From: an uncultured Clostridia bacterium
Lineage (GTDB): Bacteria; Bacillota; Clostridia; Christensenellales; UBA1242
Direction: 5' to 3'
DNA length: 64,000 nt
NCBI GenBank assembly: GCA_947588355.1
Contig: CANPYI010000002.1
Coordinates: 56,195-120,194, forward strand
Shown here piece after piece: positions 3,442-61,324 of this stretch. The notes below the pieces were generated by a model, which was given only the letters and a program-made list of their open reading frames with translations, had not been told where the DNA came from and ran no database searches. Made by a program: the position numbers and the translations under genes. Position 1 is the stretch's first letter. The number at the start of each line of letters is the position of its first letter.

Positions 3442-3470
3442 AAAACACGCAAAAAACGCGTGTTTTTTTT
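3441..3470 (+). terminator. Intrinsic terminator of trpS
   Basis: The arms AAAAACACGC and GCGTGTTTTT surround a 7-nt loop and run into a T-tract. It begins at the last base of the trpS stop codon. Confidence 0.85.
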
Positions 3471-3618: not shown

Positions 3619-3666
3619 TTGTCTGTAAGTGACAGAAAATTGTCGAGCATACTGTGGAAAGGTAGT

Positions 3667-6600
3667 ATGAAAAACAAAATCGTATTCATCTTAATCGTTT
3701 TTGTGTTTGGACTTTGTGGGGTGTTTGGCGTTTGCGGACTCCCATCTTTTCAAGTGAATGCAAGCAGTGCACAGTCAGATATTTGGAATGGTGAATATGT
3801 TGGCTCTGATGATATCGGCGAATCGGACTGGTTTTTTGACCAAAGCACAAACAGTTTTCATATTCGCAGTGCAAAAGGGCTTTCTTTTTTTGCAAGTCAA
3901 TTAAATTCGATGGGCGGCAGTGCCGCATATGACGGGAAAACTGTCTTTCTTGACACAGATATAGATTTGGCAGGACATTCATGGACTCCGATCAGTGTTG
4001 ATGTTGGCAATGCGTTTAATGGAACTTTTGATGCGCAAGGCCATTTTGTATTCAATTTAAACATTTCGGCTGGCAGCAATTATGCTGGCTTTTTTGGTGT
4101 GTTGGGTGCAAATGCAGCAATCAAAAATTTAAATTTAAGAAATGTCAAAATTTCTTCTGATTCGGCAACTCGTGTTGGCGGGCTTGTGGGCTTTCAAAAT
4201 TCCGGTTCGCTTGTTATTGACAACTGCTCGGTCAAAGGAGTGTTTGGACAACTTAATGCTTCAGCAAATACCGGCGGCTTTGTTGGACAAGCAGACAGTG
4301 TCACAATTTCAAACAGCATGGCTGATATTTCTGTCAGTGACACCACGAATGGTGCTGTTGGTGGGCTTGTTGGTCTTGCAAAAGACGTCAAAATAAATTA
4401 TTCCTATTTTGCAGGAAAGATTGAAACAACTTCCGCGCATATCGGCGGACTTGTTGGTGAAATTTCAAATTCCACACAATCAAGCATAGAAAATTCATAC
4501 ACGATTGGCACTTTGACTGCAAATGGAGGTGCTCAACTTGGCGGACTTGCGGGACATGTTGCCGGAAGTTTGACAATTGACCATGTTTACAACGGCGGGA
4601 AAATCAAATACACACTCAAAGAGGGCAGTTACATCGGAGGGCTTGTCGGTCTTGCAGTTTTTGGACAAACAAAAATTTCAAACTCGCTTATGTTGGGGCA
4701 AATGATTGGCGAAGAAGCAGGTGCAGGAAAATATTCGCCTTTATATTGCAGCGAAACTCAAACAATTCAACTTGACAAAGTTTATTTTGAAAACACACTA
4801 AAACATCAGCAAGAAGAGTCAGAATATGCGCTTGAAGACTTGACTTTCTTGGCAAAAACAAAGGATTTTTATGTCAACAGTCAATATTTTGACTCAATCT
4901 GGGATTTTGACAAAGGTTGGAAGATTGTTTCGGGCGATTTTCCTGTTTTTGTCGCTGGACATCAGACATTTAATAACGACAGTGAACTTTCAAGCGGAAC
5001 AACGTTGCTGCTTGGACAAGGCACATCTGAATCTCCATATTTGATTGAAACAGCAGGTGATTTGGCACTTGTTTCAAAAATTTATGGAGTTGGAGTTGAT
5101 GGCATCTCTTCAGATGAACACTATTTTACTTTGCAGAACGATATCAACTTGATCGGAAAAACTTGGATTCCAATCGGCACAACATCATCTTTTGTTGGAG
5201 TGTTTGACGGCAATGGTCACACAATTTCTGGGCTGACATGTTCGTTGCACGACCAATTTGAATATCATGGTCTGTTTGCTCAGACGGGTGATGCAGTGAT
5301 CAAAAATCTGACGATTGACAATGTTGATTTTGTAAATGAAGGGGCAAAAGCAAAGTCATCGCTTATTGGCAACGTCGCTGGAAATACATATTTGATCAAT
5401 TGCGTTGACAAAACTGATCTTTCAACAATCGCAAATGTGGAAAATGGAAATTTGTATGTTGCTTATGGCAAAAACAATCTTTCTGAAAATGTTGTTGATG
5501 AAAATTCGCTCAATCTTAAAAATATTGAAATTACAAAACTTTACGATGTTACAATAGCGGGCAATGGTGGAAATTTTTATACAGAAAATGTTGCCGAAAA
5601 AACTAACGATGAAAATAATACAAAAAAGATAAAAACAAACGAGTCTAAAACAGGACTTAATGCAAATTATATCTACAATGGCGAATATCACGTTTTGCTT
5701 GACGAAGACGGCAACGCAGTGAGACAAGAAATTGACAGCACTTTTGGAAAAAATCTTCCAAAACTTTCAAAAGATGTTGGAGAGGCGGATATTCTTGTTC
5801 AACGCGGATTCAAATTGCAAGGCTATGCCTATGGCGATGATATAGAGCAAATTGCTTACTCTTCAGAGACTGAAGAATGGACAAATTTCCAGCCTTCAAA
5901 AGCGGTGAATGGTTTAAGCGCAAATTGGCAAGAGGCCACAACAACAATCAAAGTTGTTTACAACAAATATGAACAAGAAAACTTTGATGTTGAAAGCAAC
6001 ACTGAAAATTCTTATATTGGCAAAACTCTTGTGGACAAAGACGAACAAGAAATTTCAACTGTCACAAAAGATCAACAAAAAGTGGAAATTATGTCAGACG
6101 GCAGTGATCTTTATGCCGAATTTGTTGTGCCATATGATTCATTTTTGGAAAATTGGGAGTATATTTTTGAGACTCCAAAATACAAAACTGAGCAAAGTTC
6201 AGCAAAACTTCGTGGGGAAAACTTTGAAATTGAGGGGATTTTTGAAAATTTTGAAAACGGTGAATTTTCAAAACAATTGCTTGCCAAACCGACATCTTTT
6301 GCAAATCGTGATCTGACAGTTTACACAAAATGGAAAGGACAAGAAAAAAACAACACAATTACATTTGAATTTACTGCAGACGATCAAGATATTGATTTAA
6401 GACAAGTTTTTGCGGAACAAAACTTTTCTCTTTTTGGATATAACGAGCAAAATTTAAACAAACCTCAATCATACGCTTCCAGCATTGTGGAACAAACCAA
6501 TCGTTCTTACAAGATTTCTTTCAGATACGATTCACTTTTCAGTGATAGATTGGACAATTATTTGCAATTTGCACTTTCATTCAGTCAAGGTTACAGATTA

Positions 6601-9600
6601 AACTTGGGTGGGGCAACGGGCAATTCCGAACAAATTTTAAGAAATCTGATTACCGCAAACGACATCGATTCAAATTTTGGAAGATTGAAATTTGATGTTT
6701 ATTCCTTTTCAAACATCGAAGATTTTAATAGTGTCAAATTCTACAATTTGTACGGAGATGTGACATTCAAATTTAATGTTGCAAAAGAATCATATATTGA
6801 CAATCTTACAATTTCAAGCGGAGTTTATTTTGGAATTGGACCGAGAGAAATCTTTAAGGTGCAAAAAGATGAATCGGGCTCTATCACTTCCAATGTGCAA
6901 ATCAACAACAGGTCCGTTTGGAGTGATATTTTGACAATTATTCAAAGTGAACAACTTAAGGAAGATCTTGCTTCGCAGCAAGAACTGTATCTTGCAGTTG
7001 ACTTGGTCAACAAAAAACTGATGTTTTCGATGGCAAGCAATCAGGTTGTTGACGAAATTGACATTTCAGAACTTATTGACCAAAATAATTCATTTTCGCT
7101 TCAGTATCGTGCTGATTTTACAAGCAACATCACTTACACTATCACTTATACAGATGTGGATATCAAAACTTTGAAACTTGAAAGAGGTGACAAAACTCTT
7201 GTAAGCGTTTATTTTGACCAAATCGACCAAGAGTCTGCCACAATCGAATATCAAGCAACAAACGACTTTGTGTTTATCTTTTCAGCACAAGACAATTCTT
7301 CTTTTTCAACTTATGGCTATGACAATGTTGATGGTGTAAAATTTCCTAACGTCAAGGTTTTGGAATACTCTGCAGAAGAACTTGAAAGTCCACCGACAAA
7401 ATTTATGGTTGATTTTGATGATGTGGTAAGACAAGCAAAACAAAACGGCGAAGTTTTGAAAGGCGAGTTGCGTGCTGTCACAAGGTACACCAATGCAACA
7501 TTTAAGTTTGATTTCAGGCATGAGGCGGAACTTGAGCAAGTTTCACAAACTGCCTCGCAAATGGGCGCCAATGCACCAAAAATAATCAACATAAGTGGAG
7601 GCGGAAAATATTCCGTTGGCACAAATGGCACAGCAACAGTGTATATTGAAAATTCTGACTATTTCAGATTTTTTGCAGACAGAAATGGCAGCGAAACGGC
7701 AAGCCTTTACAGTGACGGCAATATGGGCGAGTATCCAAAGAATGAACATTTCAATGTCAGGGTGGTTGTTTCAAATGTCGGAACCGAATCTCAAGAATTT
7801 GTTACAAATTTCAACTCGGCAAATGACATGTTTTTGAATGCTTCAATCGAAAAGTTTTCCAAAGGCACACAAGTTGATGAATTGGGAACATTCTTGCATG
7901 ATGTTTACAAAATTTCGCTTTACTATTTGTCAACCGACCAACTGACCGGTTTAAGAGCAGGGCTTTACACCATCACTCTTGTTTGCACAGATGTGTTGTA
8001 TTCAATTGATTACTCAACACGTTTTGTTGAATACAACGATTTGTATGACGAAAATCTTGGCGGATTGAGTCAAGCAAAGTTGCTTGACGATGAACTACAA
8101 TTTTCGTCACAAGAAGATTCTTCAATTCAAACAAACGTTACAGTTTCAGATGCACAAAATCTTGAAAATTCAATCACAAACATAAAATTCTCTGATGAAG
8201 TAAACCTTTCAACGTCGTTGGGTGAAGACAACAAAGGATACACTTTCTTTAGGTGGCTTGCAAAGTCTGAGGGTGGAACAAAGGTTTTTGCAGCACAAAA
8301 TTACAGTTCGCAATTTGGAAATATCTTTCAAGCATCAAGCATTTTGACTGAAGGCATGACGGCAAACAAAATTACATTGTCGGCCATTTATGTCAAAAAA
8401 CAAATCACGCTTTCTCTTGCACAAAGCGTCAAAGTTGGCGAAGTAGTGTTCACCAATGCCAAACAAGGAATCACACTTTCTATGTCAAGTGAGCAGGAGT
8501 CTATTTCAAGTTACACCTACTCTTTCACAGCAGACGAGCCTCTTGAAAAGAAGATTGATATAACTCTTGGAGGAGCAAACGGAGCGGGATTTTACTTCAC
8601 GGGCTACAGAATTGTTGATGGCACCGGCAACGAAAGAAAAACATTCACGCAAGACCAAGTAGGAATTGATGTTGATGTCATATCCAAAAAAATGACAATA
8701 AATTTAGATTGGCTTCAAGATTGGATTAAAACCGAAAACCTGTCAACAAATTCCACTTATTATATCCAACCAATTTTACAAGAAAAGACTGCAGAAATTT
8801 ATTTCCATTCTGGCACCGGCAACGAAAACGACTTTGGTGATGGCAGAGATGGGCATGTTTTCCAAAGCAACAATCAAGAATCCACAAATCTTCAATTTCA
8901 AATTTCAAGTTTGGCAGATGCACAACTTAAATTCCGCAGTATAGTAAATTTAAATTCTGTAAGTTTTGTTTCACAAAATTCAACTCAACAAACTATTGCA
9001 AACATTTTCCATCATCGCATGGGCTATCAGCCGGATTCTCAATATTTGTGGGCTTGGACAACCAAACAGAATGCCAGCCTTGCAGATGATGAACGTATTT
9101 TTGGAAACGCATTCACTTTGACAAGTGCTTTCTTTGAGGGCGCATCACAAAAAGCAACGATTCATCTTTATCGAGTTTGGAATCCAATCTCTTACAACAT
9201 TACATTTTTGGCAAACAACGGCACTTTTGCTGACGGGCAAACCTCCTTGCAAGTGAGTGTTTTGTATGACAATGTTCTTGAAAAAGAAAATATTCCAACC
9301 GAAGATTCACAATTGAAAGTTTCTCGCTCTGGATATCATCTTTCAAGTTGGAATACAGTAGAGGGCAACATTGTGTTTACGGCAGGAGGCGATTTTAAGC
9401 CAGGAACATATTTCAACGAAAAGGGTGAATACATAGGCACAACCGATTTGACTTTGTATGCAAATTGGTCTGCAATCACTTACAACGTTGAAATCAACTT
9501 CAACGGCGCAACTCAATTTGTGGGAAAAGAAGGCGAATCAGCACAATTCCAACTTGCATATGGCAGTGCATTTAAGGATATAGTGTTTGCGGAAGGGGTG

Positions 9601-12600
9601 ACCGGCGTTGAAGCACTTTCTTCTTCAAATGTTTCGCGTCCTGGATTTTTGTTTAATGGACTTTATGCAATTTCTGACGGACAAAGCAGACGCATTTCAA
9701 ACTCCACTATATTCAATCAAGACCTGTTGTCTTTTGTCTTTCCAGAACTTTCTGGACAAGAGGACACAATTCAGCAAAATATCGCTATAGTTTTGTATGT
9801 TGGTTGGCAGACTGACCAATCTTATTTTGCACTTTCTTTAAATAACAACAATTTTGAAAATTTGGTTTACAACATGCAAGAACAACCTGTTTATCTTGCA
9901 CAAATTTTCTCAAATGAAAATGTTGTTGCAGGCAATTATGAAATTGTTGCCACTGACGATGAATTGCAGATTTCTCTTCCACAAAATGCAAATGTAGATT
10001 TGGATATCACATTGCAAAATCTTCAAAATGCCACTGTTACAGATAACAACTGGCAAAGTTTTGTTGTGCTTAATGCCGGATATTACTCCGTTGCCTTGAC
10101 AATCACCATAACAGACAAGGCTTTGATGCTGAATCTTGGAAGAATCTTGACATTGCAACTTGAGTTGCATATCACTGTCCTTAAGGCAAGCCTTGATTTA
10201 AGCGATGTCACAAATTTTGATGACATGTATTTGGTGAACAACTTGCAACGTTTGGTTGGACCATTTTTGAGTACAATTGCAAACAGCAGTCTTACAAACG
10301 CAGGCAACTTGGAAAACGCTGTTAATGTGATTAAAAATCTTGACAGCGCAGATGACCAAATTAAAAATGCAAACAATCAACAAGTTTATGAATTTGCAAT
10401 GACAAAATATTATTTGCTTGCCACGACCAACAATTCCACACAACACGCAATCTACAAAACATGGAAATATGCCGACTACCTTGCTTTCAAGCAAACTGCT
10501 TCCAAGGACTTGCTTTCTCAAATTTCTCGAAATACAATATTCTTCGGCTTTTTTGACTATCAAAGAGATGAGGACTTTCAAGATTTGACATCTTATGCCA
10601 CAAGCATAAAGATGACAGCGCAAAAAGATGAAGACACAAATTTCAATCCTGTAAATTTGAGTGTTGAAAACATAAAGATAGGAACAAGCTTTGGAATCAG
10701 GATTTCGGCAAACAATTTGGTTGAACTGCGAGTTTATGTAAAGCCAAATCCAGATGATTTTGATTACATTTTGGATAATTATGTGCTTGAAACTGACACA
10801 TACGGCAGTTATTTTGTCGGAGGCACAGCATATATAATGCCTCAAATTTTGACTTTAAAGAATTATGCGAAAAACAAATCGGCGTACTACTCACAAAGAT
10901 ACGAAGACAACCGCGATGCTCAGTTTGTTGGCGGACAGCAAACCGCTCTAATAAATGGCAGGGAATATTATCTTATTGGCAACTATAATGGTGCTCCGCT
11001 GTACTTTACGGCAAACTTAAAAACTTCAAACATTGGCTTTGAAGATGCTGAAACACCTTACACATATTCCGATTTGAAAAATTACTTGTATTTTACAGAT
11101 GTTTCATTTGTTGTTTCCAAAGGCGGAACTTACACTGACATGACTCCCTCTTTCAAGCCAATTTTGTCAGATGACGACATCTTCATAATTTTGACCACCG
11201 AAAAAGTGGCAACTTTGCAATTTAGTGCCAAATATTTGACCAAGGAAGAAAATTTTATTTATTTGCGAGATTTGATGGAAAATTTATATAAAAACATATT
11301 GCAAATAACAAAAATCACCCTTACTGACGGCACGATTATTTCGGACAACGAAAACCTTAAGACAGGCAACACATATTACAACAGCAATGAAATGGCAGTG
11401 TTTGAAATTGTTGAGAATGATTCAAACAATGTTGAAGTTTTTGTAAGCAAAGAAGTTAAAAGTGCAACCTTCTCCGTCAAAACAAAAACAATAAGTGACC
11501 GCATCGCTTTGTTTAAGTGGAGCGACCAACCTTTGTATGAGGTTGATGGTACTATGGAAGACTTGGACAGTTTTACGATTGAAATTGACAAACTTGACAC
11601 TCAATCTTCAAAAGAAGTTTCTGAATTTGAGTATTATGCGATTTTCACCGACCTTGTACGTTTGGAAATAGACAAAAACTTCCCTGAAAATTGGAATTCT
11701 GAATATGTATCCGCTCTCAAACTTGGCGAGACTGTCACCGAAAGTATTTTGCCATATGAGGAAGGCTTTGGCAGGGCAGTTTCGTTGAAACTTGTCAATG
11801 AAGACGGCTCGGAGGGAGAAGATTACACTTCAATCAATTCCGAAAATGGTGTATTTGAAGGCATAAGCAAAATTTTCAAATATGCCACTGTGAAAATGTC
11901 TGCAAGATGGGAAGTAAGGGAGGACATAGAGTGCAGTTCAAGATTTGGAGACACTTACAAACTTGCAGTGCAAAGTGTAAGCAGTTTCAATGTGAATGAT
12001 TTGTTCTTCTTGAGCAATTTAAATGACAATTTGTTTGAATATACATACAGTTGGAGTGTGACTTACAACGACATGCAACAAGGCGAATTCTTTGGCGAGA
12101 CAATCAATTTGAAAGATGGCGGAAGTGCACTTGCCAGCGGAACTTACACTTTGACCATAACGGGAACTTTGCGTAATGAATTTTTGCAGGCTGGCACTTT
12201 GGCAGATGAAACAAAAACCACAACAACATGCAGTTGTTCTGTCACTCTTGAATTTGTCAAAAACAAACTTGAAGTTTTGGATTTGCCACAAGACGAGCAA
12301 CGCACCGCAACATACAACGGCCAAGACCACAAGCGAGATTTTACGGTGCATATTGAGTACACAACTTGGGACAATGATTTGCAAAGTGAAAAACACATGT
12401 CGCTGAACATGTCTTACATCGCAAGCGGACTTATTTACTTTGAAATTGATGATGGTAAAAACACTGAGATGATTGATGCTGGCACATACAAAATTCGTTT
12501 GTGCTTGCTTGAAACATTGTTTGACCTTGGAAGTTTTTCAGAGGAACAATTTTCATTCAACTTCACTGTTTTGCCTTTCGAATTAGATTTAAATACTCAG

Positions 12601-15600
12601 CAATACAAATCACAATTTTCTTTCACAAAGTTGTTCAATCAACCAGACCCGCAAATGGAACGCCAACTTGTTTTGGCTGGTGAACAAGTTGTTTTGGTGT
12701 TGAGTCGCGACAAATCCGATGAATTTGAGGGCGAAGATATTGGCACATATGAGGTTTATCTTTCAGACATAAGATGCACAAATAAAAACAACTTTAAGTT
12801 TGTTTACTCTACAGACACCGAAAAATTGGTGTTGTTTGAAAATGACACTGTCACACAAACCAAACAAAGCATTGGCACATTCACCATTTCCAAAACCGGA
12901 GGATTGCAAGTCATTTTGAGCGGTGATGAAATGCAAAATGGCATATTGTCAGTGGAATATGACGGCAAATCTTATTCTATGTCGATCACAGAAAACAAAC
13001 TCAGCATTTTGCATGAGGGTGCAAATCGCACGCTTGACATTGCATTATATGACAACACATTAGGACAGGATATATCCGCAGCGGGCAATATCTGGGAAAT
13101 CTTGAAAGATAAAACAAATTCTGTTGTTGCAAGTTTTTTCACTTCGGTTCAACATGAAAGCGTGACCGATGCAGATACCTACTATTTCCAATTTGACATG
13201 TCAAACAGCGACCTTTCAAAATATTTCTCGTCAATTTCAATTTCAACAGATTATCGCTTTGTAATCACGCCAAAAATTATCGAAACAAGCAAATTTAACC
13301 TTAACAAAACATATGACAACAAATCGACGGCATACATAGATTTGCAAGGAAATGTTCTTGACGACATACAAGGTCAAGAAGTGTATATTCTTGCCACATA
13401 CAACTCTGTTCATTTCGGCGACACGGTTGTCACACTGGAACTAAATATACAATCTTACAACTTCACACTTGAAACCCCTTACGTCAATGCCACTATAAAC
13501 AAGTTGAAAGCCACATTAAAATTGCAAGCAATTGAAAGCGCATTTAAATATGGCGAGATCAGTATGGAAACTTTGGCAGAAAACCTTCCTATTTCAAATG
13601 CCACACTTGTTGACAAAGATGACAAAGTTTTGGATTTATCCTGGCTGACAGATTATATCGAATTTTATGATATATCTTACAGTTTGAAAAGTATAGATTT
13701 GGCAAACAGCAGAGGATTTTTGTACAAAGGCACTTATATTGTTGGCACGCAAGAAGAGTCAAACATAAACATCATTGCCACCTTCCAAGATTTTGATATG
13801 ACAATACAAGGTGTTACTTTCACCGTAGAGGCTTTGCCGATACAACATACTGTTCAAGCAGGCATAGTTCAGTTGACCACGATTGAAACTCCTTTGGAAG
13901 AGTACACACAACAATTGACAATCGCTCAAACTGAAGATGTTGTTGACTTGATTTTTACCATCAAAGATTTACAAACACCTCTTGTCGCCAAGTCTTATGA
14001 TTTTGTTTTGAAAAGTTATGACAATTTGAATGATAGTATAATCGTCACCATAAATGAAGACAACAATGCGGTGATTGTGACTGAAGTGGCAGACTCGGTT
14101 GTGCTTCAAATCCAACAATCAGATTTGTCAAAACTGACGACCACATATGATGGACAAGACTACATTTTGTCGGCAACAGATGAAGATTTGCAAAACAAAA
14201 CATTCACGGTTTCTCACGGAAGCGTTGGACAGACAATACATATTGAAATTGTTTCTGAAGTTTCAATCACTTCTTTCACAAGATTTGAAATTTACACTTC
14301 TGAAAACAAAGAGGCAAAATTCAACAAGGCGGGAAGATATGCTTTGACATTTGTGGTGGAAGCAAATGGCTATCAAAATCTCATTTTGAGAGGCTATGAA
14401 TTTGTCATTGCACCTAAAACAATACTTGTTGACAATTTGGATACGACCGTTTTCAACAAAACATATGACGGCAACTCCACAACAACACCGTGTGAAAATT
14501 TCACCGAAAAAGTTGAAGGTGATAATGCTTGGATTACGGCAATCTTCTTTGACTCAGATGCGGGAGTGGACAAAGATATATCTCTCTATCTTCAGGGTGG
14601 CGACAAAGATAATTACATACTTTCAAAAAACAGAGCAACTGCAACAATTTCGCCTGCAACTGCCACAATTTCTTTTGCAAAGGACAAAGTTGATGACGGC
14701 GTGCAATACACATATGGCGAAATCACTTTGCAAGACGGAGTTTTGAACGGAATTTCCTTTGTTGTCAAGTGTGGAGAAACTCAACTTTCGTCAATGCTTT
14801 ACACTTTGACCGCAACAATAAAATCACAAGAACTTGAACCTTCTTCACAAAACTATCTGCAAGTTTCAGATGATGGCTATGATATTTCTGTGCAAAGCAC
14901 GGTTTCTTCCAAAAACTACACCATTCAGCAGTTTGTAGGCAAAATTTATATCATTCCACGTGACGTCACGATTGAATTTAAGCGAAGAGGACAAATCAGT
15001 GTTGAATATGGCACACAAGAATGGAAAAATTTGTCAGCAGATTCGCCTTACAAATATACAATTCCTGCGATAGATAATCCACTTTTGGAAGAAATTTCTG
15101 TTGGACTTGCTATTGATCAGTTGAATGACAAAGATTTGGGAGTTTACAAAATTGCAAGTGCCATTTCTTACAACAAAAACTACAACGTGACAGTGAAAGA
15201 AGATGATGTGTATGCTTTTGAAATTATCCGACAACGTCAAAGAATTTACGTTATGTTTGAAAGCGAAAAAACAGAGATTGAAGTTGTTTACAATGGAGGT
15301 GCTTACAACAATATAAAAATTCAACGGTCCGGCGAAGATTGGCTGCTTGTCATTTCCAACACGCTTGCAGAAAATATTCAAGTTGCTTTGAAATTTTACT
15401 TGCTTGTTGACGGAGAATACACTCCATTTGAAGGTCAGTTGAACGATTTGGCATCAACACTCAATTTTTCGCAAGTGCTTGGCGAAGTGAGAGACGTTGG
15501 CACATACAACATTGTTGCCACAAACACGTCGTCATCTACAAGTGACGATGTCAAGATGGGCAAAAATAATTCGATGATTGCGTTCACACTTAAAATAACC

Positions 15601-18600
15601 GAAAAAGATGTTTACTTCAACACAGCGGAAATTGTGCAGACATTCAACAATGCTGATGCTGTTTACACTGTTGATGCCCAAGACTATGTTTCGGGTATTG
15701 CAGTCGCTGACAAACTTTCGTTGACCTTGACTTTTAAAGATGGTGAAAAGATTGCAAAATATGTCACAGATGATTATTATACTGTTGAAGCAGAACTTGT
15801 TGGCGACACTTATAAAAACTACAAGCTTAACATTCAAACTGTTGACAAAAACACTGTAAAAGGCAAAATAGACAGAAAAGATATTACCTTTGTTTATTCT
15901 TCACAAACTTTGACATATGGCGATGTGGCAGAAAATGAAACTTTGCCGATTTACTATAGTTTTGACTTCGATATTGTCGGTTTTGATTACGACAAATATC
16001 TGGCAGAAAAGAAAAAAGTTTATCCAGATTTTGATGAAAGCCAAAGTTTTGACTTTACAATAAAAATCAAAGATCCAAAATATTCCACTTCAAGACATTT
16101 GGAGTTCGGGGAATATTATTTGGAATTTGAGTCTTCTGTAAGCACAACAAGTGACTTCCGTGTAAGTTACTTTAATATCAACGGTGATAACACTGTGACG
16201 GGAGATAATTTCTCACAAAAAGCAAGTTTGACAATCAGAAAAAAAGACATTTCACTTGTGCCAGCAAGCGGAAAAACTTGGCAAGATATATTCACAAAGG
16301 AATATGACGGAAGTTATGAGGCGAAAATCGTTGATGAAGAAGGTACACGTCTTGTAAATGTTCGTCAAAGCGAACTTTTGTCAAATCTTTCTGGCAGAGA
16401 TGAAGTTTCTGTGTCAAGTGCAAGTTATCCTGCGTTGCAAGGTCAGGGACTTTTGATGAACTTTGCTTTAAGTGGATATGACAGCAAAAATTATCAGGTA
16501 TCTCAGCAAATTTACGGAACAATCACTCCTGTGGAAATTGAAATCGAATTTTTGATGAACGGAGCAACTTCTGATGTCGCTGGGCAAATGCTCAGGGCAC
16601 TTGCTTATCCATTTGTTGATGATTCCACCTATCTCACTTCAAATTCGTACGACAGCGCAACTTCAAGCACAGCAAGTTTTCCATCAACATTGAGTGGTGT
16701 TGTTGGCAAGGTGTTCACTCACTGGTCTTTGCAATTTGAAAATCTTGCTGAAAACAAAATACAAACTTTGCAAGCGCTTTGCGACTCTTTTGGCTTGCAG
16801 ACCGCAATCTTAAATGAAGAGGGTGTCCCGATATTTGCAATCACGGTGGGGAATAACGCTGCCACAGTTGCACTTTTGGCAGAACTTCTTAAAGACGACA
16901 CATATGGCATGGACTACAAGACTATTGACAAAATCACTTTCCACTCAAATTGGGAGGTTGAAAAGTACACCTTAAGCATTCAAGTTGCTGACGAAAACGG
17001 CAATCCTAAAGCGCTCGGCAGAGTGACAAGTGATGATTTTGAAGGCGAGGTGACAGACTTTGCGACATTTGAAGACGTATATGAATTTGGCACAAGCATC
17101 TCGATGGCAGCACAGCCAAACGAAAGAGTGACTTTCTATGGTTTTTATCTAGGCTCTGTGCATATCACAAATGAGGGCTTATATGATTGCGGCAAATTTA
17201 CAATAGACCAATCTGGCGAAAAAATAACTTTAAATATTGACCAAATTTCTGGCGATTTGAATATTGTGGTCAGATTTTCTGTGCAACAAGTGAATATTCA
17301 GTTGCAACTTTCTGAATATGATGCAGAACTTTCGGGTGGAAACTTGGATTTTGAACGAGATAGAGACGGAAATTATGTTTGCATGACAGATTATTTCAGT
17401 TTGCAGAATGTTCGCTTTTCAGCATTGCCGACGATAACAATTGTTGGACATATTCACACCGGATTTATTGTCAATGATCAAACAATCTTGTCAGCGGAGT
17501 ATGAGACAACATTGCTGACAACCTATTTGACAGACGACAAGGCAAGCAGTATAACACTCGTTATAACACCAAAATTTGAGCCAAAAACTATCAGCGTTGT
17601 GCTTGATTTCAATTACACTGGCGGCGAAAAGAGGACAATTTATGTAAAATACGGCAGTACGTATGAAACTGCACAGGGTTGGCAAGAAAATTTGGACGAT
17701 CAACTAAACGAAGGCTTCCATTTTGAAGGTTGGTTTGATGAAAATGAAACAGAAGTCAGTGGCTCGGATACTGTTTTGACAGACAAAGAAACAATCACGC
17801 TGACTGCTCATTGGAGTGAGTTGACCTACGAACTTAGGTTGACCATATCACATACAAGAATGACAATGTTCTCCGGCGTTGATTTTGAAAAAATCGGCGA
17901 CACTTATGTTGCAACCGGTATCAAATTTGGAACGAATATGGAATTTGTTTTGTATGCAGAAGATGGCTACAAATTTCCGGAAGATTGGCAAGACAATTTC
18001 AATGTTAATCTTGCTGATGATGGCAAAATTGCAAATGTAAGTTTCAAAATGCCTTCAAAAACACTCATAAAAGAAGTGGAGATGATTGCTCTGCCACACA
18101 CAATCACTTTTGGCGGTGAAAATTTGCAAAAAGTTGATGTGTTTGATATCACTGACGAAAAAACAAAAATAGAAGTTTTTGAACAAGAGCAAAAGTTTAC
18201 ACAAGAAGCCGGGCGTGCTGTAAGATTTGAAGTCACAGCATCAAAGGGATATATCATGTCCGAAAATGTTGTTTTAAGTTGGGCTGACGGTCAACCTTTG
18301 CAACAACATGAACTTGAAGATTTGCAGCATAGCATTCAGTTGGACGAAAATGGCATTTTGATTTTGCAAATTTTCGGACTTGTGAGAGATATTTCAATCA
18401 CATTCCAAACTGCAGCAAAAACAAACACGCTGACACTTGTTTTTGAAACTAAAGAAGCCATTGCGACAGTTGTTGTTGACGGTCAATCCTACACATTGGA
18501 AAGGCTTCCTATTTTGCAATGTCAGACAGCACAAACATTCAGTTTTGAAGTACAATTTGCACATGGATACAAGTTTGGACAGGTGGAGAGTGAAGAATTT

Positions 18601-21600
18601 GCCGTTTCCTATAATGAAATCTTGAATAATGAGCAGTTTACAGGGCGATACACTTTTGAAATTTCAGATATTTACGGTGATGGACAAATCATAATTTCTT
18701 CCGCTTTAAGACAATTCACAATATCAACTTCCGTGATATCTTACAACGAAGACCGCGAAAAAGAAGACAATCCACAAAACCAAGCATACATTCAAATTGG
18801 TGAACAAAATCTAAGTTCTGTTACGCAAGATTTTGGCACAGAAGTGACAATCGTGCTTCAAAATGCAGCAAGTTTCAAATTTGCAGGTTGGAGTAAAGAC
18901 GGGGAAACGGTTATTTCTGAAACAAACTTGGCTGAAGAAGGTTTGAGGCTTTTGCACGGAAACACTTGGAGTTACACTGTTGACAACGATACCACACTTT
19001 ATGCAATTTTTGCAGAAGGTCCGTACACGATATCTCTTGGCATGTTGGATTATGTTTTCTATATCACAAATGGCAAGAGCAATGTTGAAAATCAATTTGT
19101 TGCTCTTGAAAATGGACAATATTTTGAAAGTGACGGTCAAACAGAAATAACGGAAAGTTTCCAACTTGTTTATGGCGCGAACAAAGAAATTGTGGTCAAC
19201 ATTCCAACAGGCTATGTTTTCTACGGCTTAGGTTTCTTTGATATTGAAAACAAATTTGTTTTCCTTGGGCAGCCTTATTTGCGACCTGCACAAACACGAC
19301 AAGAAAGAGTTGTTGTCAACTCACTTGAATTCGGCACAACGTTTGTGGAAAGAATCTATATGGTTGTTGTTTCTCAACTGACAAGCATAAAAGTTTCAAG
19401 CAAAATTGATTTTGCCGGCAAATACGAAGATGACAAAGATGTCGGCTCAATTGAACTTGTCGGCTCTGATGGAACGTCAGTCAACAGTGCTGGCTGGATT
19501 GAAGGCACGCGACTACATTATCTTGCCGGTGACTTTTCAAATGGAAATGTGAAAGATGTACGCAATTTCAGTATTGTGGCTTACACGGGCGACACTGTTT
19601 ATCTTAAAGTCAACAATCCTCGTGCTGGATACAGAATAGGCTCGCTGCTTGTCAACAACGAAGAGTTTTTTGTTTTAAGTGGTCCAACACAAGGTGTTGA
19701 TAGTGTGATTTATCAAATTTCTGGGATTGTTGGCGGAATGAGTGGCCTTGAAATTACGGTGCTTTATGTACCAAATTTAAACACCATCAACCTCAAATTT
19801 GTTCAAGAAGGTCAAGACAGCAATGTTGCAGTTGGCGGAGGAATGTTCCAGAGCACCACTCAAGATGGAACAAAAATGTGGATAACGGGAAATGAAAGCA
19901 CACAATTGATTGTGACTGCTTACACTGATGTGTCATTCACTGTGCAAGCATACATTCGCGCAGGATTCTATGTCAACAAAGAAGATGTCGAAAACAATTT
20001 GGTTGTTTTGAGCCCTTCAAATATAGTAAGACTTTCCAGCGTTCAATACACTCCACTTTCTGTGGAACTTAGCGGCTTCACGGGAAGAATAAGTTTTGTT
20101 GTTGAAGGTTTTGCCGGAATAAATGACATAAACATCTTGCTTAAGTCTTCCAAATATACCGTCATGTTTATGGATAACGAAACCGTGCTTGCAACTGTAC
20201 GCAATGTGGCGTTCAACACCAGTCTGCAAGAAAGTTTGTCGCAACAAAACAGTCAAAACATAACTGCGGGCAATCTTGTGTATGTAAACGGCTATCTTGA
20301 CCTTGTCAGAACGCTTGAAAAACATCACTTCGAGGGCTACTTTACTTTCCAAAATGGTGCGGGCGTGAGATATGTTGATTCCACCGGCAAGGCAGTTTCG
20401 ACTTGGCAAGAAAGTGGATATGCATTCAATTCTTTGAAGAACAAGTTTGAATTGACATCAAACGCATTTGTTGACCAAGACGGAAATATGGTTGTGAAAC
20501 TTTATCTGTATATGTCCTTCCTTAAAACAAGACTGACATTCAACTTTCAACCAAGTGGCATAAATCTGACCGCACAAAACATGGTCACGGGCATCGATCC
20601 AACAAACTCTTGGTTTTACGAAGCGTCGCCAAATTATATCGAAGTTTCTTTCAACACGGATATATATATCACGGCGCCAGAAACCAATGGATACAAATTC
20701 TTTAAGTTTATCATCGCACAGAAAACATTTGACGGAACTTGGCTGACCGCGGTGACATCTTATCAGAGCCGTGTACCATGGTCCACAAACAACGTTGACC
20801 AAATCGTTGAAGTGAACATCGATGTTGTGTACTTTGCAAAAGTTGATGTTGATGTTGTTGGTGGCGATGGCACATACACCATTTCTCAGGACAACGACTC
20901 TGATTCTCAAGCCGATGCAATGATAAGTCAAGGTTATGTTTCAACGGAAAAACCATTCACAATCACAGCAAAACCAGAGGAAGGATATATCTTCAATCAA
21001 TGGCGCTATTTGGGGCAAGTTTCTTCAAATCCAACAATAAGTTTGACGATTTACTCGAATGTAACATTGACAATGAACCTTTCGGGTGTTGCGGCCACAT
21101 TAGATTTTTCAAAATATGATTTGGCAAAAGGACATATCGAGTCCATAACAATACACAGTAAATCCGGCAGAGAAAGAACAGAAACACTTGGAAGCGGAAA
21201 TGTTGGAAACTTCAACAGATATCCAAACAAATTGTTTGTGTCAGTGAATGTTGGTGACCAAATCACCTTTAAGGTGGCAACAAACACGAATGTTGGAGTA
21301 AGTTGGAATTTGGACAATGTGACATTTGCGAGATTTTCCGGAAATTATCAGTATTTTGTGTTTGAAGTGGGCAGTGCTTTGGCAAACAAGACCACAGCGG
21401 TGATTCCGGCATTCACAAACACACACAGAGCAATTTACATAAATAGTCAGTTTGACCAGGATTTGACCAGTGCCATAGATATGAATAATGTTGATTTTGC
21501 AGGACAAATTTTGTGTAATGGCAAACAAGTTGAATATCTTTTGGCAAAACGGGAAGATGCCGTTGAAATTGATTTACTCGCCAACGCGCGCTACGAAATA

Positions 21601-22236
21601 TCCCAAATCACACTTCACTCTCAGCAAGATCAATCTGTGGACGTTTCATCGCTTTTGATTGACGGCAAGTTGACACTGAGCGAAGAAGTGCTCAAGGACA
21701 TGAATTTGAATGATTTTGGAACTTTGTATTTGCAAGTTACATTCTCGCGATTGATGTGGCAGGATTTGCAATTCGAAGATGAAACATTTGAAGGACTTGG
21801 CACAAAAGACAACCCATACAAAATCAACAATGAAAATGACCTTTCGCTTTTGATGAAACTTGTAAACAGCGGTGCTGTAAATGAAAACGGAGAGCAGTAC
21901 ACAAATCTCTGCTATGTGCTGACCAAAAATCTCAACATCAATGAAAGATTCTGGACTCCAATCGGGACATATGAATTTGCTTTCAATGGCACTTTTGATT
22001 TCAACAATCATAATGTGAAGGACATTACCAATGCCATCAAATACGAAACTGTGTCCTACAATGGTTTGTTTGGAGTTTTGGGCTCAAGTGCAACCATTTT
22101 GTATGGAAGCGGAATAAATTGGTGGTGGTTCTTGATTATAGCGTTGGTTGTTGTGCTTTTGATACTGCTTGTCGTTCTTATACTTGCCAACAAAAAACGC
22201 AAAAAAGAGAATGAAAAATTGGCAAAAAGAGGCTAA
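3667..22236 (+). CDS. Giant membrane-anchored surface protein with GLUG-like, InlB-B-like and MBG/YDG-like repeats
   Basis: A single unbroken frame of about 6,189 residues. I place the start at ATG 3667 (GGAAAGG just upstream) rather than the TTG at 3619, because a signal peptide then begins immediately: a basic MKNK, then a hydrophobic stretch to about residue 33. Residues 60-350 carry six GGLVG-type repeats (GLUG-like beta-helix), and a similar block lies at about 450-590. Segments near 1840-1930 and 4640-4725 resemble Listeria-Bacteroides (InlB B) repeats, with GYHLSSWN, GFHFEGW and LTLYANWS. Segments near 2880, 3210-3290, 3490-3675 and 4210-4295 have the TYDG/TYNG pattern of MBG/YDG domains. 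The C-terminus has a module like the N-terminal one, then a hydrophobic helix and the basic tail NKKRKKENEK. No LPXTG motif is present. An adhesin or cell-surface scaffold role is inferred; no enzymatic domain was recognised. Confidence 0.9.
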   Translation: MKNKIVFILIVFVFGLCGVFGVCGLPSFQVNASSAQSDIWNGEYVGSDDIGESDWFFDQSTNSFHIRSAKGLSFFASQLNSMGGSAAYDGKTVFLDTDIDLAGHSWTPISVDVGNAFNGTFDAQGHFVFNLNISAGSNYAGFFGVLGANAAIKNLNLRNVKISSDSATRVGGLVGFQNSGSLVIDNCSVKGVFGQLNASANTGGFVGQADSVTISNSMADISVSDTTNGAVGGLVGLAKDVKINYSYFAGKIETTSAHIGGLVGEISNSTQSSIENSYTIGTLTANGGAQLGGLAGHVAGSLTIDHVYNGGKIKYTLKEGSYIGGLVGLAVFGQTKISNSLMLGQMIGEEAGAGKYSPLYCSETQTIQLDKVYFENTLKHQQEESEYALEDLTFLAKTKDFYVNSQYFDSIWDFDKGWKIVSGDFPVFVAGHQTFNNDSELSSGTTLLLGQGTSESPYLIETAGDLALVSKIYGVGVDGISSDEHYFTLQNDINLIGKTWIPIGTTSSFVGVFDGNGHTISGLTCSLHDQFEYHGLFAQTGDAVIKNLTIDNVDFVNEGAKAKSSLIGNVAGNTYLINCVDKTDLSTIANVENGNLYVAYGKNNLSENVVDENSLNLKNIEITKLYDVTIAGNGGNFYTENVAEKTNDENNTKKIKTNESKTGLNANYIYNGEYHVLLDEDGNAVRQEIDSTFGKNLPKLSKDVGEADILVQRGFKLQGYAYGDDIEQIAYSSETEEWTNFQPSKAVNGLSANWQEATTTIKVVYNKYEQENFDVESNTENSYIGKTLVDKDEQEISTVTKDQQKVEIMSDGSDLYAEFVVPYDSFLENWEYIFETPKYKTEQSSAKLRGENFEIEGIFENFENGEFSKQLLAKPTSFANRDLTVYTKWKGQEKNNTITFEFTADDQDIDLRQVFAEQNFSLFGYNEQNLNKPQSYASSIVEQTNRSYKISFRYDSLFSDRLDNYLQFALSFSQGYRLNLGGATGNSEQILRNLITANDIDSNFGRLKFDVYSFSNIEDFNSVKFYNLYGDVTFKFNVAKESYIDNLTISSGVYFGIGPREIFKVQKDESGSITSNVQINNRSVWSDILTIIQSEQLKEDLASQQELYLAVDLVNKKLMFSMASNQVVDEIDISELIDQNNSFSLQYRADFTSNITYTITYTDVDIKTLKLERGDKTLVSVYFDQIDQESATIEYQATNDFVFIFSAQDNSSFSTYGYDNVDGVKFPNVKVLEYSAEELESPPTKFMVDFDDVVRQAKQNGEVLKGELRAVTRYTNATFKFDFRHEAELEQVSQTASQMGANAPKIINISGGGKYSVGTNGTATVYIENSDYFRFFADRNGSETASLYSDGNMGEYPKNEHFNVRVVVSNVGTESQEFVTNFNSANDMFLNASIEKFSKGTQVDELGTFLHDVYKISLYYLSTDQLTGLRAGLYTITLVCTDVLYSIDYSTRFVEYNDLYDENLGGLSQAKLLDDELQFSSQEDSSIQTNVTVSDAQNLENSITNIKFSDEVNLSTSLGEDNKGYTFFRWLAKSEGGTKVFAAQNYSSQFGNIFQASSILTEGMTANKITLSAIYVKKQITLSLAQSVKVGEVVFTNAKQGITLSMSSEQESISSYTYSFTADEPLEKKIDITLGGANGAGFYFTGYRIVDGTGNERKTFTQDQVGIDVDVISKKMTINLDWLQDWIKTENLSTNSTYYIQPILQEKTAEIYFHSGTGNENDFGDGRDGHVFQSNNQESTNLQFQISSLADAQLKFRSIVNLNSVSFVSQNSTQQTIANIFHHRMGYQPDSQYLWAWTTKQNASLADDERIFGNAFTLTSAFFEGASQKATIHLYRVWNPISYNITFLANNGTFADGQTSLQVSVLYDNVLEKENIPTEDSQLKVSRSGYHLSSWNTVEGNIVFTAGGDFKPGTYFNEKGEYIGTTDLTLYANWSAITYNVEINFNGATQFVGKEGESAQFQLAYGSAFKDIVFAEGVTGVEALSSSNVSRPGFLFNGLYAISDGQSRRISNSTIFNQDLLSFVFPELSGQEDTIQQNIAIVLYVGWQTDQSYFALSLNNNNFENLVYNMQEQPVYLAQIFSNENVVAGNYEIVATDDELQISLPQNANVDLDITLQNLQNATVTDNNWQSFVVLNAGYYSVALTITITDKALMLNLGRILTLQLELHITVLKASLDLSDVTNFDDMYLVNNLQRLVGPFLSTIANSSLTNAGNLENAVNVIKNLDSADDQIKNANNQQVYEFAMTKYYLLATTNNSTQHAIYKTWKYADYLAFKQTASKDLLSQISRNTIFFGFFDYQRDEDFQDLTSYATSIKMTAQKDEDTNFNPVNLSVENIKIGTSFGIRISANNLVELRVYVKPNPDDFDYILDNYVLETDTYGSYFVGGTAYIMPQILTLKNYAKNKSAYYSQRYEDNRDAQFVGGQQTALINGREYYLIGNYNGAPLYFTANLKTSNIGFEDAETPYTYSDLKNYLYFTDVSFVVSKGGTYTDMTPSFKPILSDDDIFIILTTEKVATLQFSAKYLTKEENFIYLRDLMENLYKNILQITKITLTDGTIISDNENLKTGNTYYNSNEMAVFEIVENDSNNVEVFVSKEVKSATFSVKTKTISDRIALFKWSDQPLYEVDGTMEDLDSFTIEIDKLDTQSSKEVSEFEYYAIFTDLVRLEIDKNFPENWNSEYVSALKLGETVTESILPYEEGFGRAVSLKLVNEDGSEGEDYTSINSENGVFEGISKIFKYATVKMSARWEVREDIECSSRFGDTYKLAVQSVSSFNVNDLFFLSNLNDNLFEYTYSWSVTYNDMQQGEFFGETINLKDGGSALASGTYTLTITGTLRNEFLQAGTLADETKTTTTCSCSVTLEFVKNKLEVLDLPQDEQRTATYNGQDHKRDFTVHIEYTTWDNDLQSEKHMSLNMSYIASGLIYFEIDDGKNTEMIDAGTYKIRLCLLETLFDLGSFSEEQFSFNFTVLPFELDLNTQQYKSQFSFTKLFNQPDPQMERQLVLAGEQVVLVLSRDKSDEFEGEDIGTYEVYLSDIRCTNKNNFKFVYSTDTEKLVLFENDTVTQTKQSIGTFTISKTGGLQVILSGDEMQNGILSVEYDGKSYSMSITENKLSILHEGANRTLDIALYDNTLGQDISAAGNIWEILKDKTNSVVASFFTSVQHESVTDADTYYFQFDMSNSDLSKYFSSISISTDYRFVITPKIIETSKFNLNKTYDNKSTAYIDLQGNVLDDIQGQEVYILATYNSVHFGDTVVTLELNIQSYNFTLETPYVNATINKLKATLKLQAIESAFKYGEISMETLAENLPISNATLVDKDDKVLDLSWLTDYIEFYDISYSLKSIDLANSRGFLYKGTYIVGTQEESNINIIATFQDFDMTIQGVTFTVEALPIQHTVQAGIVQLTTIETPLEEYTQQLTIAQTEDVVDLIFTIKDLQTPLVAKSYDFVLKSYDNLNDSIIVTINEDNNAVIVTEVADSVVLQIQQSDLSKLTTTYDGQDYILSATDEDLQNKTFTVSHGSVGQTIHIEIVSEVSITSFTRFEIYTSENKEAKFNKAGRYALTFVVEANGYQNLILRGYEFVIAPKTILVDNLDTTVFNKTYDGNSTTTPCENFTEKVEGDNAWITAIFFDSDAGVDKDISLYLQGGDKDNYILSKNRATATISPATATISFAKDKVDDGVQYTYGEITLQDGVLNGISFVVKCGETQLSSMLYTLTATIKSQELEPSSQNYLQVSDDGYDISVQSTVSSKNYTIQQFVGKIYIIPRDVTIEFKRRGQISVEYGTQEWKNLSADSPYKYTIPAIDNPLLEEISVGLAIDQLNDKDLGVYKIASAISYNKNYNVTVKEDDVYAFEIIRQRQRIYVMFESEKTEIEVVYNGGAYNNIKIQRSGEDWLLVISNTLAENIQVALKFYLLVDGEYTPFEGQLNDLASTLNFSQVLGEVRDVGTYNIVATNTSSSTSDDVKMGKNNSMIAFTLKITEKDVYFNTAEIVQTFNNADAVYTVDAQDYVSGIAVADKLSLTLTFKDGEKIAKYVTDDYYTVEAELVGDTYKNYKLNIQTVDKNTVKGKIDRKDITFVYSSQTLTYGDVAENETLPIYYSFDFDIVGFDYDKYLAEKKKVYPDFDESQSFDFTIKIKDPKYSTSRHLEFGEYYLEFESSVSTTSDFRVSYFNINGDNTVTGDNFSQKASLTIRKKDISLVPASGKTWQDIFTKEYDGSYEAKIVDEEGTRLVNVRQSELLSNLSGRDEVSVSSASYPALQGQGLLMNFALSGYDSKNYQVSQQIYGTITPVEIEIEFLMNGATSDVAGQMLRALAYPFVDDSTYLTSNSYDSATSSTASFPSTLSGVVGKVFTHWSLQFENLAENKIQTLQALCDSFGLQTAILNEEGVPIFAITVGNNAATVALLAELLKDDTYGMDYKTIDKITFHSNWEVEKYTLSIQVADENGNPKALGRVTSDDFEGEVTDFATFEDVYEFGTSISMAAQPNERVTFYGFYLGSVHITNEGLYDCGKFTIDQSGEKITLNIDQISGDLNIVVRFSVQQVNIQLQLSEYDAELSGGNLDFERDRDGNYVCMTDYFSLQNVRFSALPTITIVGHIHTGFIVNDQTILSAEYETTLLTTYLTDDKASSITLVITPKFEPKTISVVLDFNYTGGEKRTIYVKYGSTYETAQGWQENLDDQLNEGFHFEGWFDENETEVSGSDTVLTDKETITLTAHWSELTYELRLTISHTRMTMFSGVDFEKIGDTYVATGIKFGTNMEFVLYAEDGYKFPEDWQDNFNVNLADDGKIANVSFKMPSKTLIKEVEMIALPHTITFGGENLQKVDVFDITDEKTKIEVFEQEQKFTQEAGRAVRFEVTASKGYIMSENVVLSWADGQPLQQHELEDLQHSIQLDENGILILQIFGLVRDISITFQTAAKTNTLTLVFETKEAIATVVVDGQSYTLERLPILQCQTAQTFSFEVQFAHGYKFGQVESEEFAVSYNEILNNEQFTGRYTFEISDIYGDGQIIISSALRQFTISTSVISYNEDREKEDNPQNQAYIQIGEQNLSSVTQDFGTEVTIVLQNAASFKFAGWSKDGETVISETNLAEEGLRLLHGNTWSYTVDNDTTLYAIFAEGPYTISLGMLDYVFYITNGKSNVENQFVALENGQYFESDGQTEITESFQLVYGANKEIVVNIPTGYVFYGLGFFDIENKFVFLGQPYLRPAQTRQERVVVNSLEFGTTFVERIYMVVVSQLTSIKVSSKIDFAGKYEDDKDVGSIELVGSDGTSVNSAGWIEGTRLHYLAGDFSNGNVKDVRNFSIVAYTGDTVYLKVNNPRAGYRIGSLLVNNEEFFVLSGPTQGVDSVIYQISGIVGGMSGLEITVLYVPNLNTINLKFVQEGQDSNVAVGGGMFQSTTQDGTKMWITGNESTQLIVTAYTDVSFTVQAYIRAGFYVNKEDVENNLVVLSPSNIVRLSSVQYTPLSVELSGFTGRISFVVEGFAGINDINILLKSSKYTVMFMDNETVLATVRNVAFNTSLQESLSQQNSQNITAGNLVYVNGYLDLVRTLEKHHFEGYFTFQNGAGVRYVDSTGKAVSTWQESGYAFNSLKNKFELTSNAFVDQDGNMVVKLYLYMSFLKTRLTFNFQPSGINLTAQNMVTGIDPTNSWFYEASPNYIEVSFNTDIYITAPETNGYKFFKFIIAQKTFDGTWLTAVTSYQSRVPWSTNNVDQIVEVNIDVVYFAKVDVDVVGGDGTYTISQDNDSDSQADAMISQGYVSTEKPFTITAKPEEGYIFNQWRYLGQVSSNPTISLTIYSNVTLTMNLSGVAATLDFSKYDLAKGHIESITIHSKSGRERTETLGSGNVGNFNRYPNKLFVSVNVGDQITFKVATNTNVGVSWNLDNVTFARFSGNYQYFVFEVGSALANKTTAVIPAFTNTHRAIYINSQFDQDLTSAIDMNNVDFAGQILCNGKQVEYLLAKREDAVEIDLLANARYEISQITLHSQQDQSVDVSSLLIDGKLTLSEEVLKDMNLNDFGTLYLQVTFSRLMWQDLQFEDETFEGLGTKDNPYKINNENDLSLLMKLVNSGAVNENGEQYTNLCYVLTKNLNINERFWTPIGTYEFAFNGTFDFNNHNVKDITNAIKYETVSYNGLFGVLGSSATILYGSGINWWWFLIIALVVVLLILLVVLILANKKRKKENEKLAKRG
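4165..4710 (+). repeat. Six GGLVG-type (GLUG-like) repeats in the giant protein
   Basis: The encoded repeats begin GGLVGFQNSG, GGFVGQADS, GGLVGLAKD, GGLVGEISN, GGLAGHVAG and GGLVGLAVF, spaced roughly 25-35 residues apart and each followed by a short strand with an SNS/ENS-type turn. This is the pattern of GLUG beta-helix repeats of surface proteins. The DNA copies are diverged, so they are not a recent tandem duplication. Confidence 0.75.
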
Positions 22237-22257
22237 AAACAAAAATATTTTTGCATC

Positions 22258-22317
22258 AAAAGAAATAAAATAAAGCAAGGAAATTTTTATGAACATTTTT
22301 CTTGCTTTATTTCTTTT
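22258..22317 (+). promoter_or_regulatory. Inverted repeat enclosing the uppP ribosome binding site and start codon
   Basis: The left arm 22258-22279 pairs with the right arm 22301-22317: 17 base pairs with one 5-nt bulge, including AAGCAAG with CTTGCTT. The left arm ends in the Shine-Dalgarno region and the right arm lies in codons 5-10 of uppP, so the ATG sits in the loop. It may restrict translation or help end the upstream transcript; no clear U-tract follows. Confidence 0.4.
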
Positions 22318-48256: not shown

Positions 48257-48286
48257 TTGACTTACACGTCGGATTTAGGTTATGAT
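48257..48286 (+). promoter_or_regulatory. Promoter of the 1,464-aa surface-protein gene
   Basis: TTGACT (48257-48262), an 18-bp spacer and TATGAT (48281-48286). This gives a leader of about 33 nt with AGGAG 7 nt before the ATG, the leadered type in contrast to several neighbours. Confidence 0.7.
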
Positions 48287-48325
48287 ACTTGTGTTATCAT
48301 ATTTCATACAATTAGGAGATTTGCT

Positions 48326-61242: not shown

Positions 61243-61270
61243 AAAAATACCTCTCTTAAAACTCGAAATC

Positions 61271-61298
61271 ATTTTAGCACAAAGAAAAATTATTTCAA
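61271..61298 (-). promoter_or_regulatory. Promoter of the 2,800-aa surface-protein gene
   Basis: On the minus strand: TTGAAA (61293-61298), a 16-bp spacer with extended TGc, and TAAAAT (61271-61276). The leader is about 22 nt. Confidence 0.6.
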
Positions 61299-61324
61299 AG
61301 TAAAATAAGATTATTTTTATTAAA

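What the first reader, a model, noticed from the sequence alone, without database searches (positions are those of the whole stretch)
3667..22236. An intact 6,189-residue surface protein in an AT-rich genome
One uninterrupted frame covers 29 per cent of the window and mixes several repeat families (GLUG-like, InlB-B-like, MBG/YDG-like) between a signal peptide and a C-terminal membrane anchor. Such size suggests strong selection for a surface function, such as host or polymer binding.
Basis: partly seen in the sequence, partly recalled or inferred. Interest (0 to 1): 0.6.

Follow-up and report, generated by a model that had tools for sequence, protein, structure and literature searches.

The report
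Conserved giant membrane-anchored surface fibre
Nearly every species of an uncultured genus of small-genome gut bacteria carries one giant surface protein, probably a long membrane-anchored fibre with a sugar- or protein-binding tip, and in one branch of the genus its length changes in whole steps of about 1,900 residues.

Summary
Window 3667-22236 is one intact 6,189-codon frame with a signal peptide, a GLUG beta-solenoid head, a long beta-domain stalk (InlB-B and YDG/MBG types) and a C-terminal membrane helix with a basic tail. It is not an assembly product: the DNA has no direct repeats and independently assembled relatives carry the same gene.

It is a core gene. 96 of 112 species genomes of this uncultured Clostridia genus (probably Christensenellales) have one orthologue, usually beside trpS. 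It is under purifying selection along its whole length although most orthologues are only about 17-40% identical. Sortase is missing from 59 of 61 genomes, so anchoring by the membrane helix is expected.

The unexpected part is how length changes. In the window's clade (31 species) length is 5,960-6,462. In the sister clade it alternates between about 4,500 and 6,450, because one diverged tandem super-unit of about 1,900 residues was lost in register, at least four times independently, at different junctions.

Best explanation: a fibrillar-adhesin-like surface fibre. Binding itself is untested. A strict "ruler" was not supported: small indels do not compensate, and two neighbouring surface proteins are equally length-stable.

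The parts
3440..3468 (+). terminator-like hairpin after trpS, separating the giant gene's transcription unit
   Evidence: consensus match, 3 found against 0.2 expected; inference for function
3656..3662 (+). Shine-Dalgarno-like GGAAAGG
   Evidence: read directly from the sequence
3667..22236 (+). giant surface protein gene, 6,189 codons plus stop
   Evidence: orthologues
3667..3762 (+). signal peptide (aa 1 to about 32)
   Evidence: basic N-terminus plus hydrophobic segment aa 1-30; same in orthologues
3784..5466 (+). GLUG beta-solenoid head with two N-cap units (about aa 40-600)
   Evidence: Pfam Glug and Peptidase_M26_N; PDB 6xja E 2.7e-20, 3n6z E 1.2e-20; AlphaFold2 pLDDT 86, pTM 0.81; Foldseek 3n6z
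9004..9846 (+). InlB-B/List_Bact_rpt-like domains (about aa 1780-2060), alike to aa 4560-4730
   Evidence: profile self-comparison
12184..16566 (+). YDG/MBG-type domain array (about aa 2840-4300) with a diverged higher-order repeat of about 390 residues; the zone where much of the family's length difference falls
   Evidence: Pfam YDG in 15 and MBG_2 in 8 of 27 orthologue segments; self-comparison; collinearity with the short form; AlphaFold2 of aa 3600-4560, pLDDT 85, pTM 0.42
17344..20166 (+). second InlB-B/Flg_new-type stretch (about aa 4560-5500)
   Evidence: TIGR02543 at aa 4683-4718, Flg_new_2 at aa 5054-5085, self-similarity
20314..21786 (+). best-conserved stem next to the membrane (about aa 5550-6040), includes a Flg_new_2 match
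   Evidence: Flg_new_2 in 15 of 18 orthologues; 49% mean identity in bin 5551-5700
21787..22101 (+). C-terminal GLUG N-cap (aa 6041-6145), homologous to the two caps of the head
   Evidence: profile comparison E 3.5e-19 and 9e-13; the same end pairing in clade A and B forms
22096..22233 (+). membrane helix (aa 6144-6179) and basic tail KKRKKENEKLAKRG
   Evidence: hydrophobicity, alignment A1

Best explanation
The gene encodes a single-chain, membrane-anchored surface fibre of the fibrillar-adhesin-like kind. Inferred: it is exported by Sec, held in the cell membrane by its C-terminal helix because the genus almost entirely lacks sortase, and crosses the wall as a string of several dozen small beta-domains that carries an N-terminal GLUG beta-solenoid tip roughly 200-300 nm outward, where the tip binds a host or community glycan or glycoprotein. 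Shown by sequence: it is one copy per genome, near-universal in the genus, ancient, and under purifying selection that is strongest next to the membrane and weakest at the tip. Also shown: in the sister clade its length evolves by in-register loss of a diverged super-unit of about 1,900 residues, and the window's clade carries an expanded YDG/MBG zone with a roughly 390-residue repeat.
For: Signal peptide and one C-terminal helix as the only hydrophobic segments. Beta-solenoid head with homology to a solved GLUG domain. Beta-domain stalk. Sortase absent in 59 of 61 genomes. One strong orthologue in 96 of 112 genomes, beside trpS in nearly all loci read, with gltX and bacA in the window's clade. 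dN/dS 0.14 over the whole gene for G034/G035, by windows 0.20-0.29 at the N-terminus and mostly 0.07-0.13 in the C-terminal third, against 0.04-0.09 for five neighbours. A and B forms align collinearly.
Against: No binding site, ligand, expression or localisation evidence. Core-gene status and weak tip diversification are not typical of accessory adhesins and would also fit a structural envelope fibre. Only two segments were modelled; the mid model has low pTM (0.42), so rod shape and length are estimates.
Confidence: 0.6

Rival explanations
1. It is a structural envelope fibre (a coat or spacer that keeps neighbouring cells or phages at a distance, or strengthens the envelope), not primarily an adhesin; the head and the C-terminal GLUG cap make protein-protein contacts.
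For: Core and single copy; purifying selection over the full length with the membrane-proximal part best kept; a homologous GLUG cap at both ends in clades A and B; two further membrane-anchored surface proteins of the window are equally core.
Against: The head is a solenoid whose closest solved relatives by sequence are domains of IgA1 proteases, with weaker fold likeness to an adhesin; tip faster-evolving than base.
Confidence: 0.25
2. Its length is a molecular ruler under direct selection: species keep either about 4,500 or about 6,300 residues because the tip must reach a set distance.
For: Narrow size classes: clade A 6,221 +/- 128, B-short 4,526 +/- 163, B-long 6,475 +/- 171; repeated loss of whole units; clades A and B reach about 6,300 by different routes.
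Against: Small indels do not compensate (net squared over summed squares averages 2.7, with 1 expected for a random walk). The other large surface proteins, about 2,733-3,011 and 1,312-1,572, are as length-stable. Unit-step change alone gives discrete sizes without selection. Sizes off the classes exist (5,612, 6,828, 7,672).
Confidence: 0.1
3. Assembly artefact or decaying pseudogene.
For: MAG-derived genomes; one orthologue with an in-frame TAA (G124); G110 has super-unit copies that are 100% identical over at least 1,000 residues next to a contig end.
Against: No DNA repeats in this gene; intact frames in dozens of independent assemblies; dN/dS far below 1.
Confidence: 0.02

Closest known systems
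Fibrillar adhesin-like proteins (Monzon et al. 2021, PMC8286594)
   Same: Extracellular, terminal candidate adhesive region, long stalk of beta-domains, C-terminal surface anchor.
   Different: The GLUG, MBG and Flg_new names do not occur in that paper's text; the anchor is a membrane helix in a sortase-less genus; core gene of a genus.
Apilactobacillus kunkeei Giant1-5 (PMC12863079)
   Same: 3,000-8,000 residues in a small genome, N-terminal beta-solenoid (Giant1-4), purifying selection (dS 4-8 times dN there), proposed sugar or glycoprotein binding.
   Different: Those are five genes side by side, mostly with alpha-helical stalks, SH3b-like ends and no membrane helix; this one is a single core gene with a beta stalk and a membrane anchor.
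Periscope Proteins (PMC8201768, PMC9704523)
   Same: Rod-like stalk whose unit number sets how far an N-terminal domain projects; length changes by whole units, probably through recombination.
   Different: Periscope units are near-identical domains varying between close strains; here the unit is about 1,900 residues (many domains), the copies are 24-31% identical, and change is seen between species.
Staphylococcal Ebh/Embp giant surface proteins (PMC7587433 abstract; Ebh anchoring from own knowledge)
   Same: Giant single chain at the cell surface; Ebh is membrane-anchored (own knowledge).
   Different: Alpha-helical bundle repeats, against beta-domains and a beta-solenoid head here.
M26 IgA1 protease N-terminal region (PDB 6xja, 3n6z)
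   Same: GLUG beta-solenoid head by sequence and fold.
   Different: No HExxH motif and no M26 catalytic domain match; not a protease by these tests.

Membership tests
Fibrillar adhesin-like protein | extracellular | tested here: met
   signal peptide by hydrophobicity and its conservation; prediction only
Fibrillar adhesin-like protein | adhesive region at a terminus | tested here: inconclusive
   beta-solenoid head at the N-terminus; binding not shown
Fibrillar adhesin-like protein | stalk-like region forming a rod | tested here: inconclusive
   beta-domain array by Pfam and AlphaFold2; rigidity and shape not testable, pTM 0.42
Fibrillar adhesin-like protein | surface anchor | tested here: met
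   C-terminal membrane helix and basic tail in the complete clade A and B orthologues
Fibrillar adhesin-like protein | each chain spans the whole fibril | not testable with these tools
   needs microscopy
Periscope Protein | highly identical tandem repeats | tested here: not met
   no DNA repeats in the window gene; clade B copies 24-31% identical; G110 is a possible exception
Periscope Protein | unit number varies between close strains | not tested
   only one genome per species was available
A. kunkeei Giant proteins | alpha-helical repeat rod (Giant1-3) and SH3b-like C-terminus without membrane helix | tested here: not met
   beta stalk and membrane helix
M26 IgA1 protease | zinc-protease HExxH and M26 catalytic domain | tested here: not met
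   no HExxH; no Pfam M26 catalytic match
Sortase-anchored surface protein | LPXTG motif and a sortase in the genome | tested here: not met
   no LPXTG in the C-terminus as read; PF04203 absent from this genome and from 59 of 61

The most novel reading that the evidence does not exclude
A giant, near-universal surface fibre of a whole bacterial genus whose reach switches in discrete quanta: an ancient super-unit of about 1,900 residues, too diverged for simple repeat slippage today, has repeatedly been removed in register, so that species carry a one-step-shorter or one-step-longer fibre with the same ends.
Probability: 0.4. Interest if true: 0.65.

Novelty: new variant of a known kind. Interest (0 to 1): 0.5.

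Why it matters
Large surface proteins are usually seen as accessory and fast-changing. Here a 6,200-residue one is a core gene of a genus with genomes near 1 Mb and takes 2% of this one; with the two other large membrane-anchored proteins the window holds about 31 kb of such genes. The quantised length offers a natural experiment: sister species differ by one super-unit in an otherwise collinear protein, so the effect of reach on colonisation, adhesion or phage access could be tested. It also shows that whole blocks of many diverged domains can be lost in register several times.

Tried and rejected
Ruler under selection: not supported by the indel test and the controls. Assembly collapse or join: rejected. 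Protease: no HExxH or M26 catalytic domain. Recent repeat expansion in the window gene: no DNA repeats, only diverged repeats of about 390 residues. A 1,900-residue duplication in the window's own clade: not found. Independent gains of the super-unit in each long clade B species: rejected, because the second copies of different species group together. Insertion of unrelated DNA as the source of the extra block: rejected, it is homologous to its flanks. Absence in near-complete genomes: G097 does carry the gene start at a contig edge; G031 has a dUTPase-like gene beside trpS instead; others unresolved. Naming the genus: contig titles say only uncultured Clostridia, Eubacteriales or Christensenella MAGs, several apparently from rabbit and roe deer gut. 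A first collection scan with the N-terminus found nothing, and alignment A1 was too diverged to scan with. Foldseek of the mid segment gave only generic beta-domain arrays with low scores. A self-BLAST with default settings returned nothing and was redone with windows. No Rfam match in the leader.

Full report
OBSERVATION. Window 3667-22236 (+) is a single open frame of 6,189 residues, preceded by a ribosome-binding-site-like GGAAAGG at 3656-3662. A terminator-like hairpin at 3440-3468 separates it from the upstream tRNA synthetase gene, which is class I W/Y type by Pfam and taken here as trpS. Downstream comes bacA/uppP. The window is part of a 928 kb, 15-contig genome, about 95% complete. 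The frame is far beyond chance (about 10^-197). It contains no direct DNA repeat of 40 bases or more and no tandem repeat, which removes the usual cause of assembly errors in such genes.

ANATOMY. Two hydrophobic segments only: aa 1-30 (signal peptide) and aa 6144-6179 (membrane helix), followed by a basic tail. The head (about aa 40-600) matches Pfam Glug above cut-off and Peptidase_M26_N and, as a profile, the solved GLUG domains of IgA1 proteases (3n6z 1.2e-20, 6xja 2.7e-20). AlphaFold2 gives a confident beta-rich solenoid (pLDDT 86, pTM 0.81); Foldseek finds 3n6z first and, more weakly, the L. reuteri SRRP solenoid. No HExxH and no M26 catalytic domain were found. The stalk contains InlB-B-type stretches around aa 1780-2060 and 4560-5100 and a YDG/MBG array at about aa 2840-4300 with a diverged repeat of about 390 residues. 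A 961-residue segment of it is modelled as consecutive small beta-domains (pLDDT 85, pTM 0.42). A half GLUG unit (aa 6041-6145) sits directly before the membrane helix and is homologous to the two caps of the head. This end pairing is seen in clade A and clade B forms; its meaning is unknown.

FAMILY. A search of 112 species genomes of the genus with the C-terminal profile gave a strong match (249 to 912 bits) in 96 genomes, one gene per genome. Next came a 133-bit fragment, and everything else was about 91 bits or less, GLUG caps of other proteins. G018 and G120 show split or fragmentary matches on several contigs. One of the apparent absences is a contig break (G097); one looks real at that locus (G031). 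In 297 genomes of the order, the only strong matches outside the genus were two partial ones in sister genera of the family, and more partial homologues appear across the family. The locus is conserved: trpS is adjacent in nearly all loci read, and gltX, bacA, the P-type ATPase and holB flank it in clade A. Sequence is not: clade A orthologues are 22-38% identical over the full length apart from one close pair, while neighbours are mostly about 55-80% identical to the window's. Selection is nevertheless purifying along the whole gene: dN/dS 0.137 for G034/G035 against 0.036-0.091 for five neighbours, highest in the first 1,200 residues and lowest near the membrane. Other pairs range from 0.14 to 0.41 where dS is not saturated; many dS values are above 1, so these are rough.

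LENGTH IN STEPS. Fetched orthologues fall into classes: clade A (31 species, including the window) 5,960-6,462; clade B short 4,297-4,913; clade B long 6,240-6,873. In clade B, long and short forms alternate on the tree. Sisters differ by one stretch (1,914 residues between G104 and G098, about 1,905 between G084 and G073, about 1,876 between G128 and G002). That stretch is a diverged tandem copy of its surroundings: offset 1,900-2,000, 24-31% identity, best E 8e-48, found in long forms and not as a block in short ones. Trees of the two parts are clear. Before the junction, the single copies of the short forms group with copy 1 of their long relatives; after it they group with copy 2; and copy 2 sequences of different long species group together. 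Short forms are therefore hybrids produced by in-register loss of one period from a two-copy ancestor. The junctions differ: G098 coordinate 2763 in G104, 2708-2711 in G081/G084 (2664 in G090), 2474-2480 in G009/G127, 2336 in G134, about 2477 in G128. Hence at least four independent losses. G027, G074 and G083 are ambiguous. Trees were read without support values, so the count is a lower-confidence figure than the existence of the losses. Clade A has no 1,900-residue repeat; it aligns collinearly with the short form and owes its extra length to a larger head and an expanded YDG/MBG zone. G110 (7,672) has three copies with a 1,663 period, partly 100% identical, next to a contig end; this may be recent or an assembly effect.

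IS LENGTH ITSELF SELECTED? Two tests give no evidence for it. Small indels between related orthologues do not cancel (mean ratio 2.7 against 1 for a random walk). Two other membrane-anchored surface proteins of the window are as core and as length-stable (104 and 106 of 112 genomes). Step-like loss explains discrete sizes without a ruler. Whether the steps are adaptive is open.

MECHANISM. Most likely a fibrillar-adhesin-like fibre. Shown by sequence: export signal, membrane helix, solenoid head, beta-domain stalk, single-copy conservation, selection. Inferred: Sec export; anchoring by the helix, consistent with the absence of sortase in 59 of 61 genomes; extended shape of roughly 200-300 nm from several dozen domains; glycan or glycoprotein binding by the tip. 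The main rival is a structural envelope or spacer fibre.

COMPARISON. It works like fibrillar adhesins (PMC8286594) and resembles the A. kunkeei giants (PMC12863079) in having a solenoid head, great size in a small genome and purifying selection, but it differs in stalk, anchor and gene number. It resembles Periscope Proteins (PMC8201768, PMC9704523) in step-wise length, but fails their defining feature of near-identical repeats. It is therefore filed as a new variant of a known kind.

Noticed in passing
window 48257-52720 (+) and 52840-61377 (-): Two further large secreted, membrane-anchored proteins (about 1,466 and 2,800 residues from the likely starts), convergent neighbours, found in 106 and 104 of 112 genus genomes with stable lengths. 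The listed N-termini are too long; likely starts are internal ATGs.
   Followed up: partly
L156-L160 (G200:C5:1-99999): A sister genus carries one uninterrupted frame of 18,042 residues (54 kb of a 1.1 Mb genome) with a signal peptide, a C-terminal membrane helix and about 15 GLUG head-like stretches in its first 8,000 residues.
   Followed up: partly
L057 (G034:C2:68000-81466): A second giant frame of another kind (at least 4,488 residues, 6,674 reported) that starts with a lipoprotein-type signal (LTAC) and contains GLUG-like sequence.
   Followed up: no
window 22257-22318: Inverted repeat (13 nt perfect, 26 nt at 81%) that spans the start codon of bacA at 22289; it could end the giant's transcript or control bacA.
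   Followed up: no
genus genomes: Sortase (PF04203) was found in only 2 of 61 genomes of this genus, G003 and G036.
   Followed up: partly
L151-L152 (G110:C3): Three super-unit copies, two of them 100% identical over at least 1,000 residues, at a contig end: a very recent duplication or an assembly duplication.
   Followed up: partly
family of G371: Many sister genera carry frames of 5,000-10,000 residues with GLUG units (for example 9,946 in G299 and 9,840 in G402), so giant surface proteins look typical of this small-genome family.
   Followed up: no
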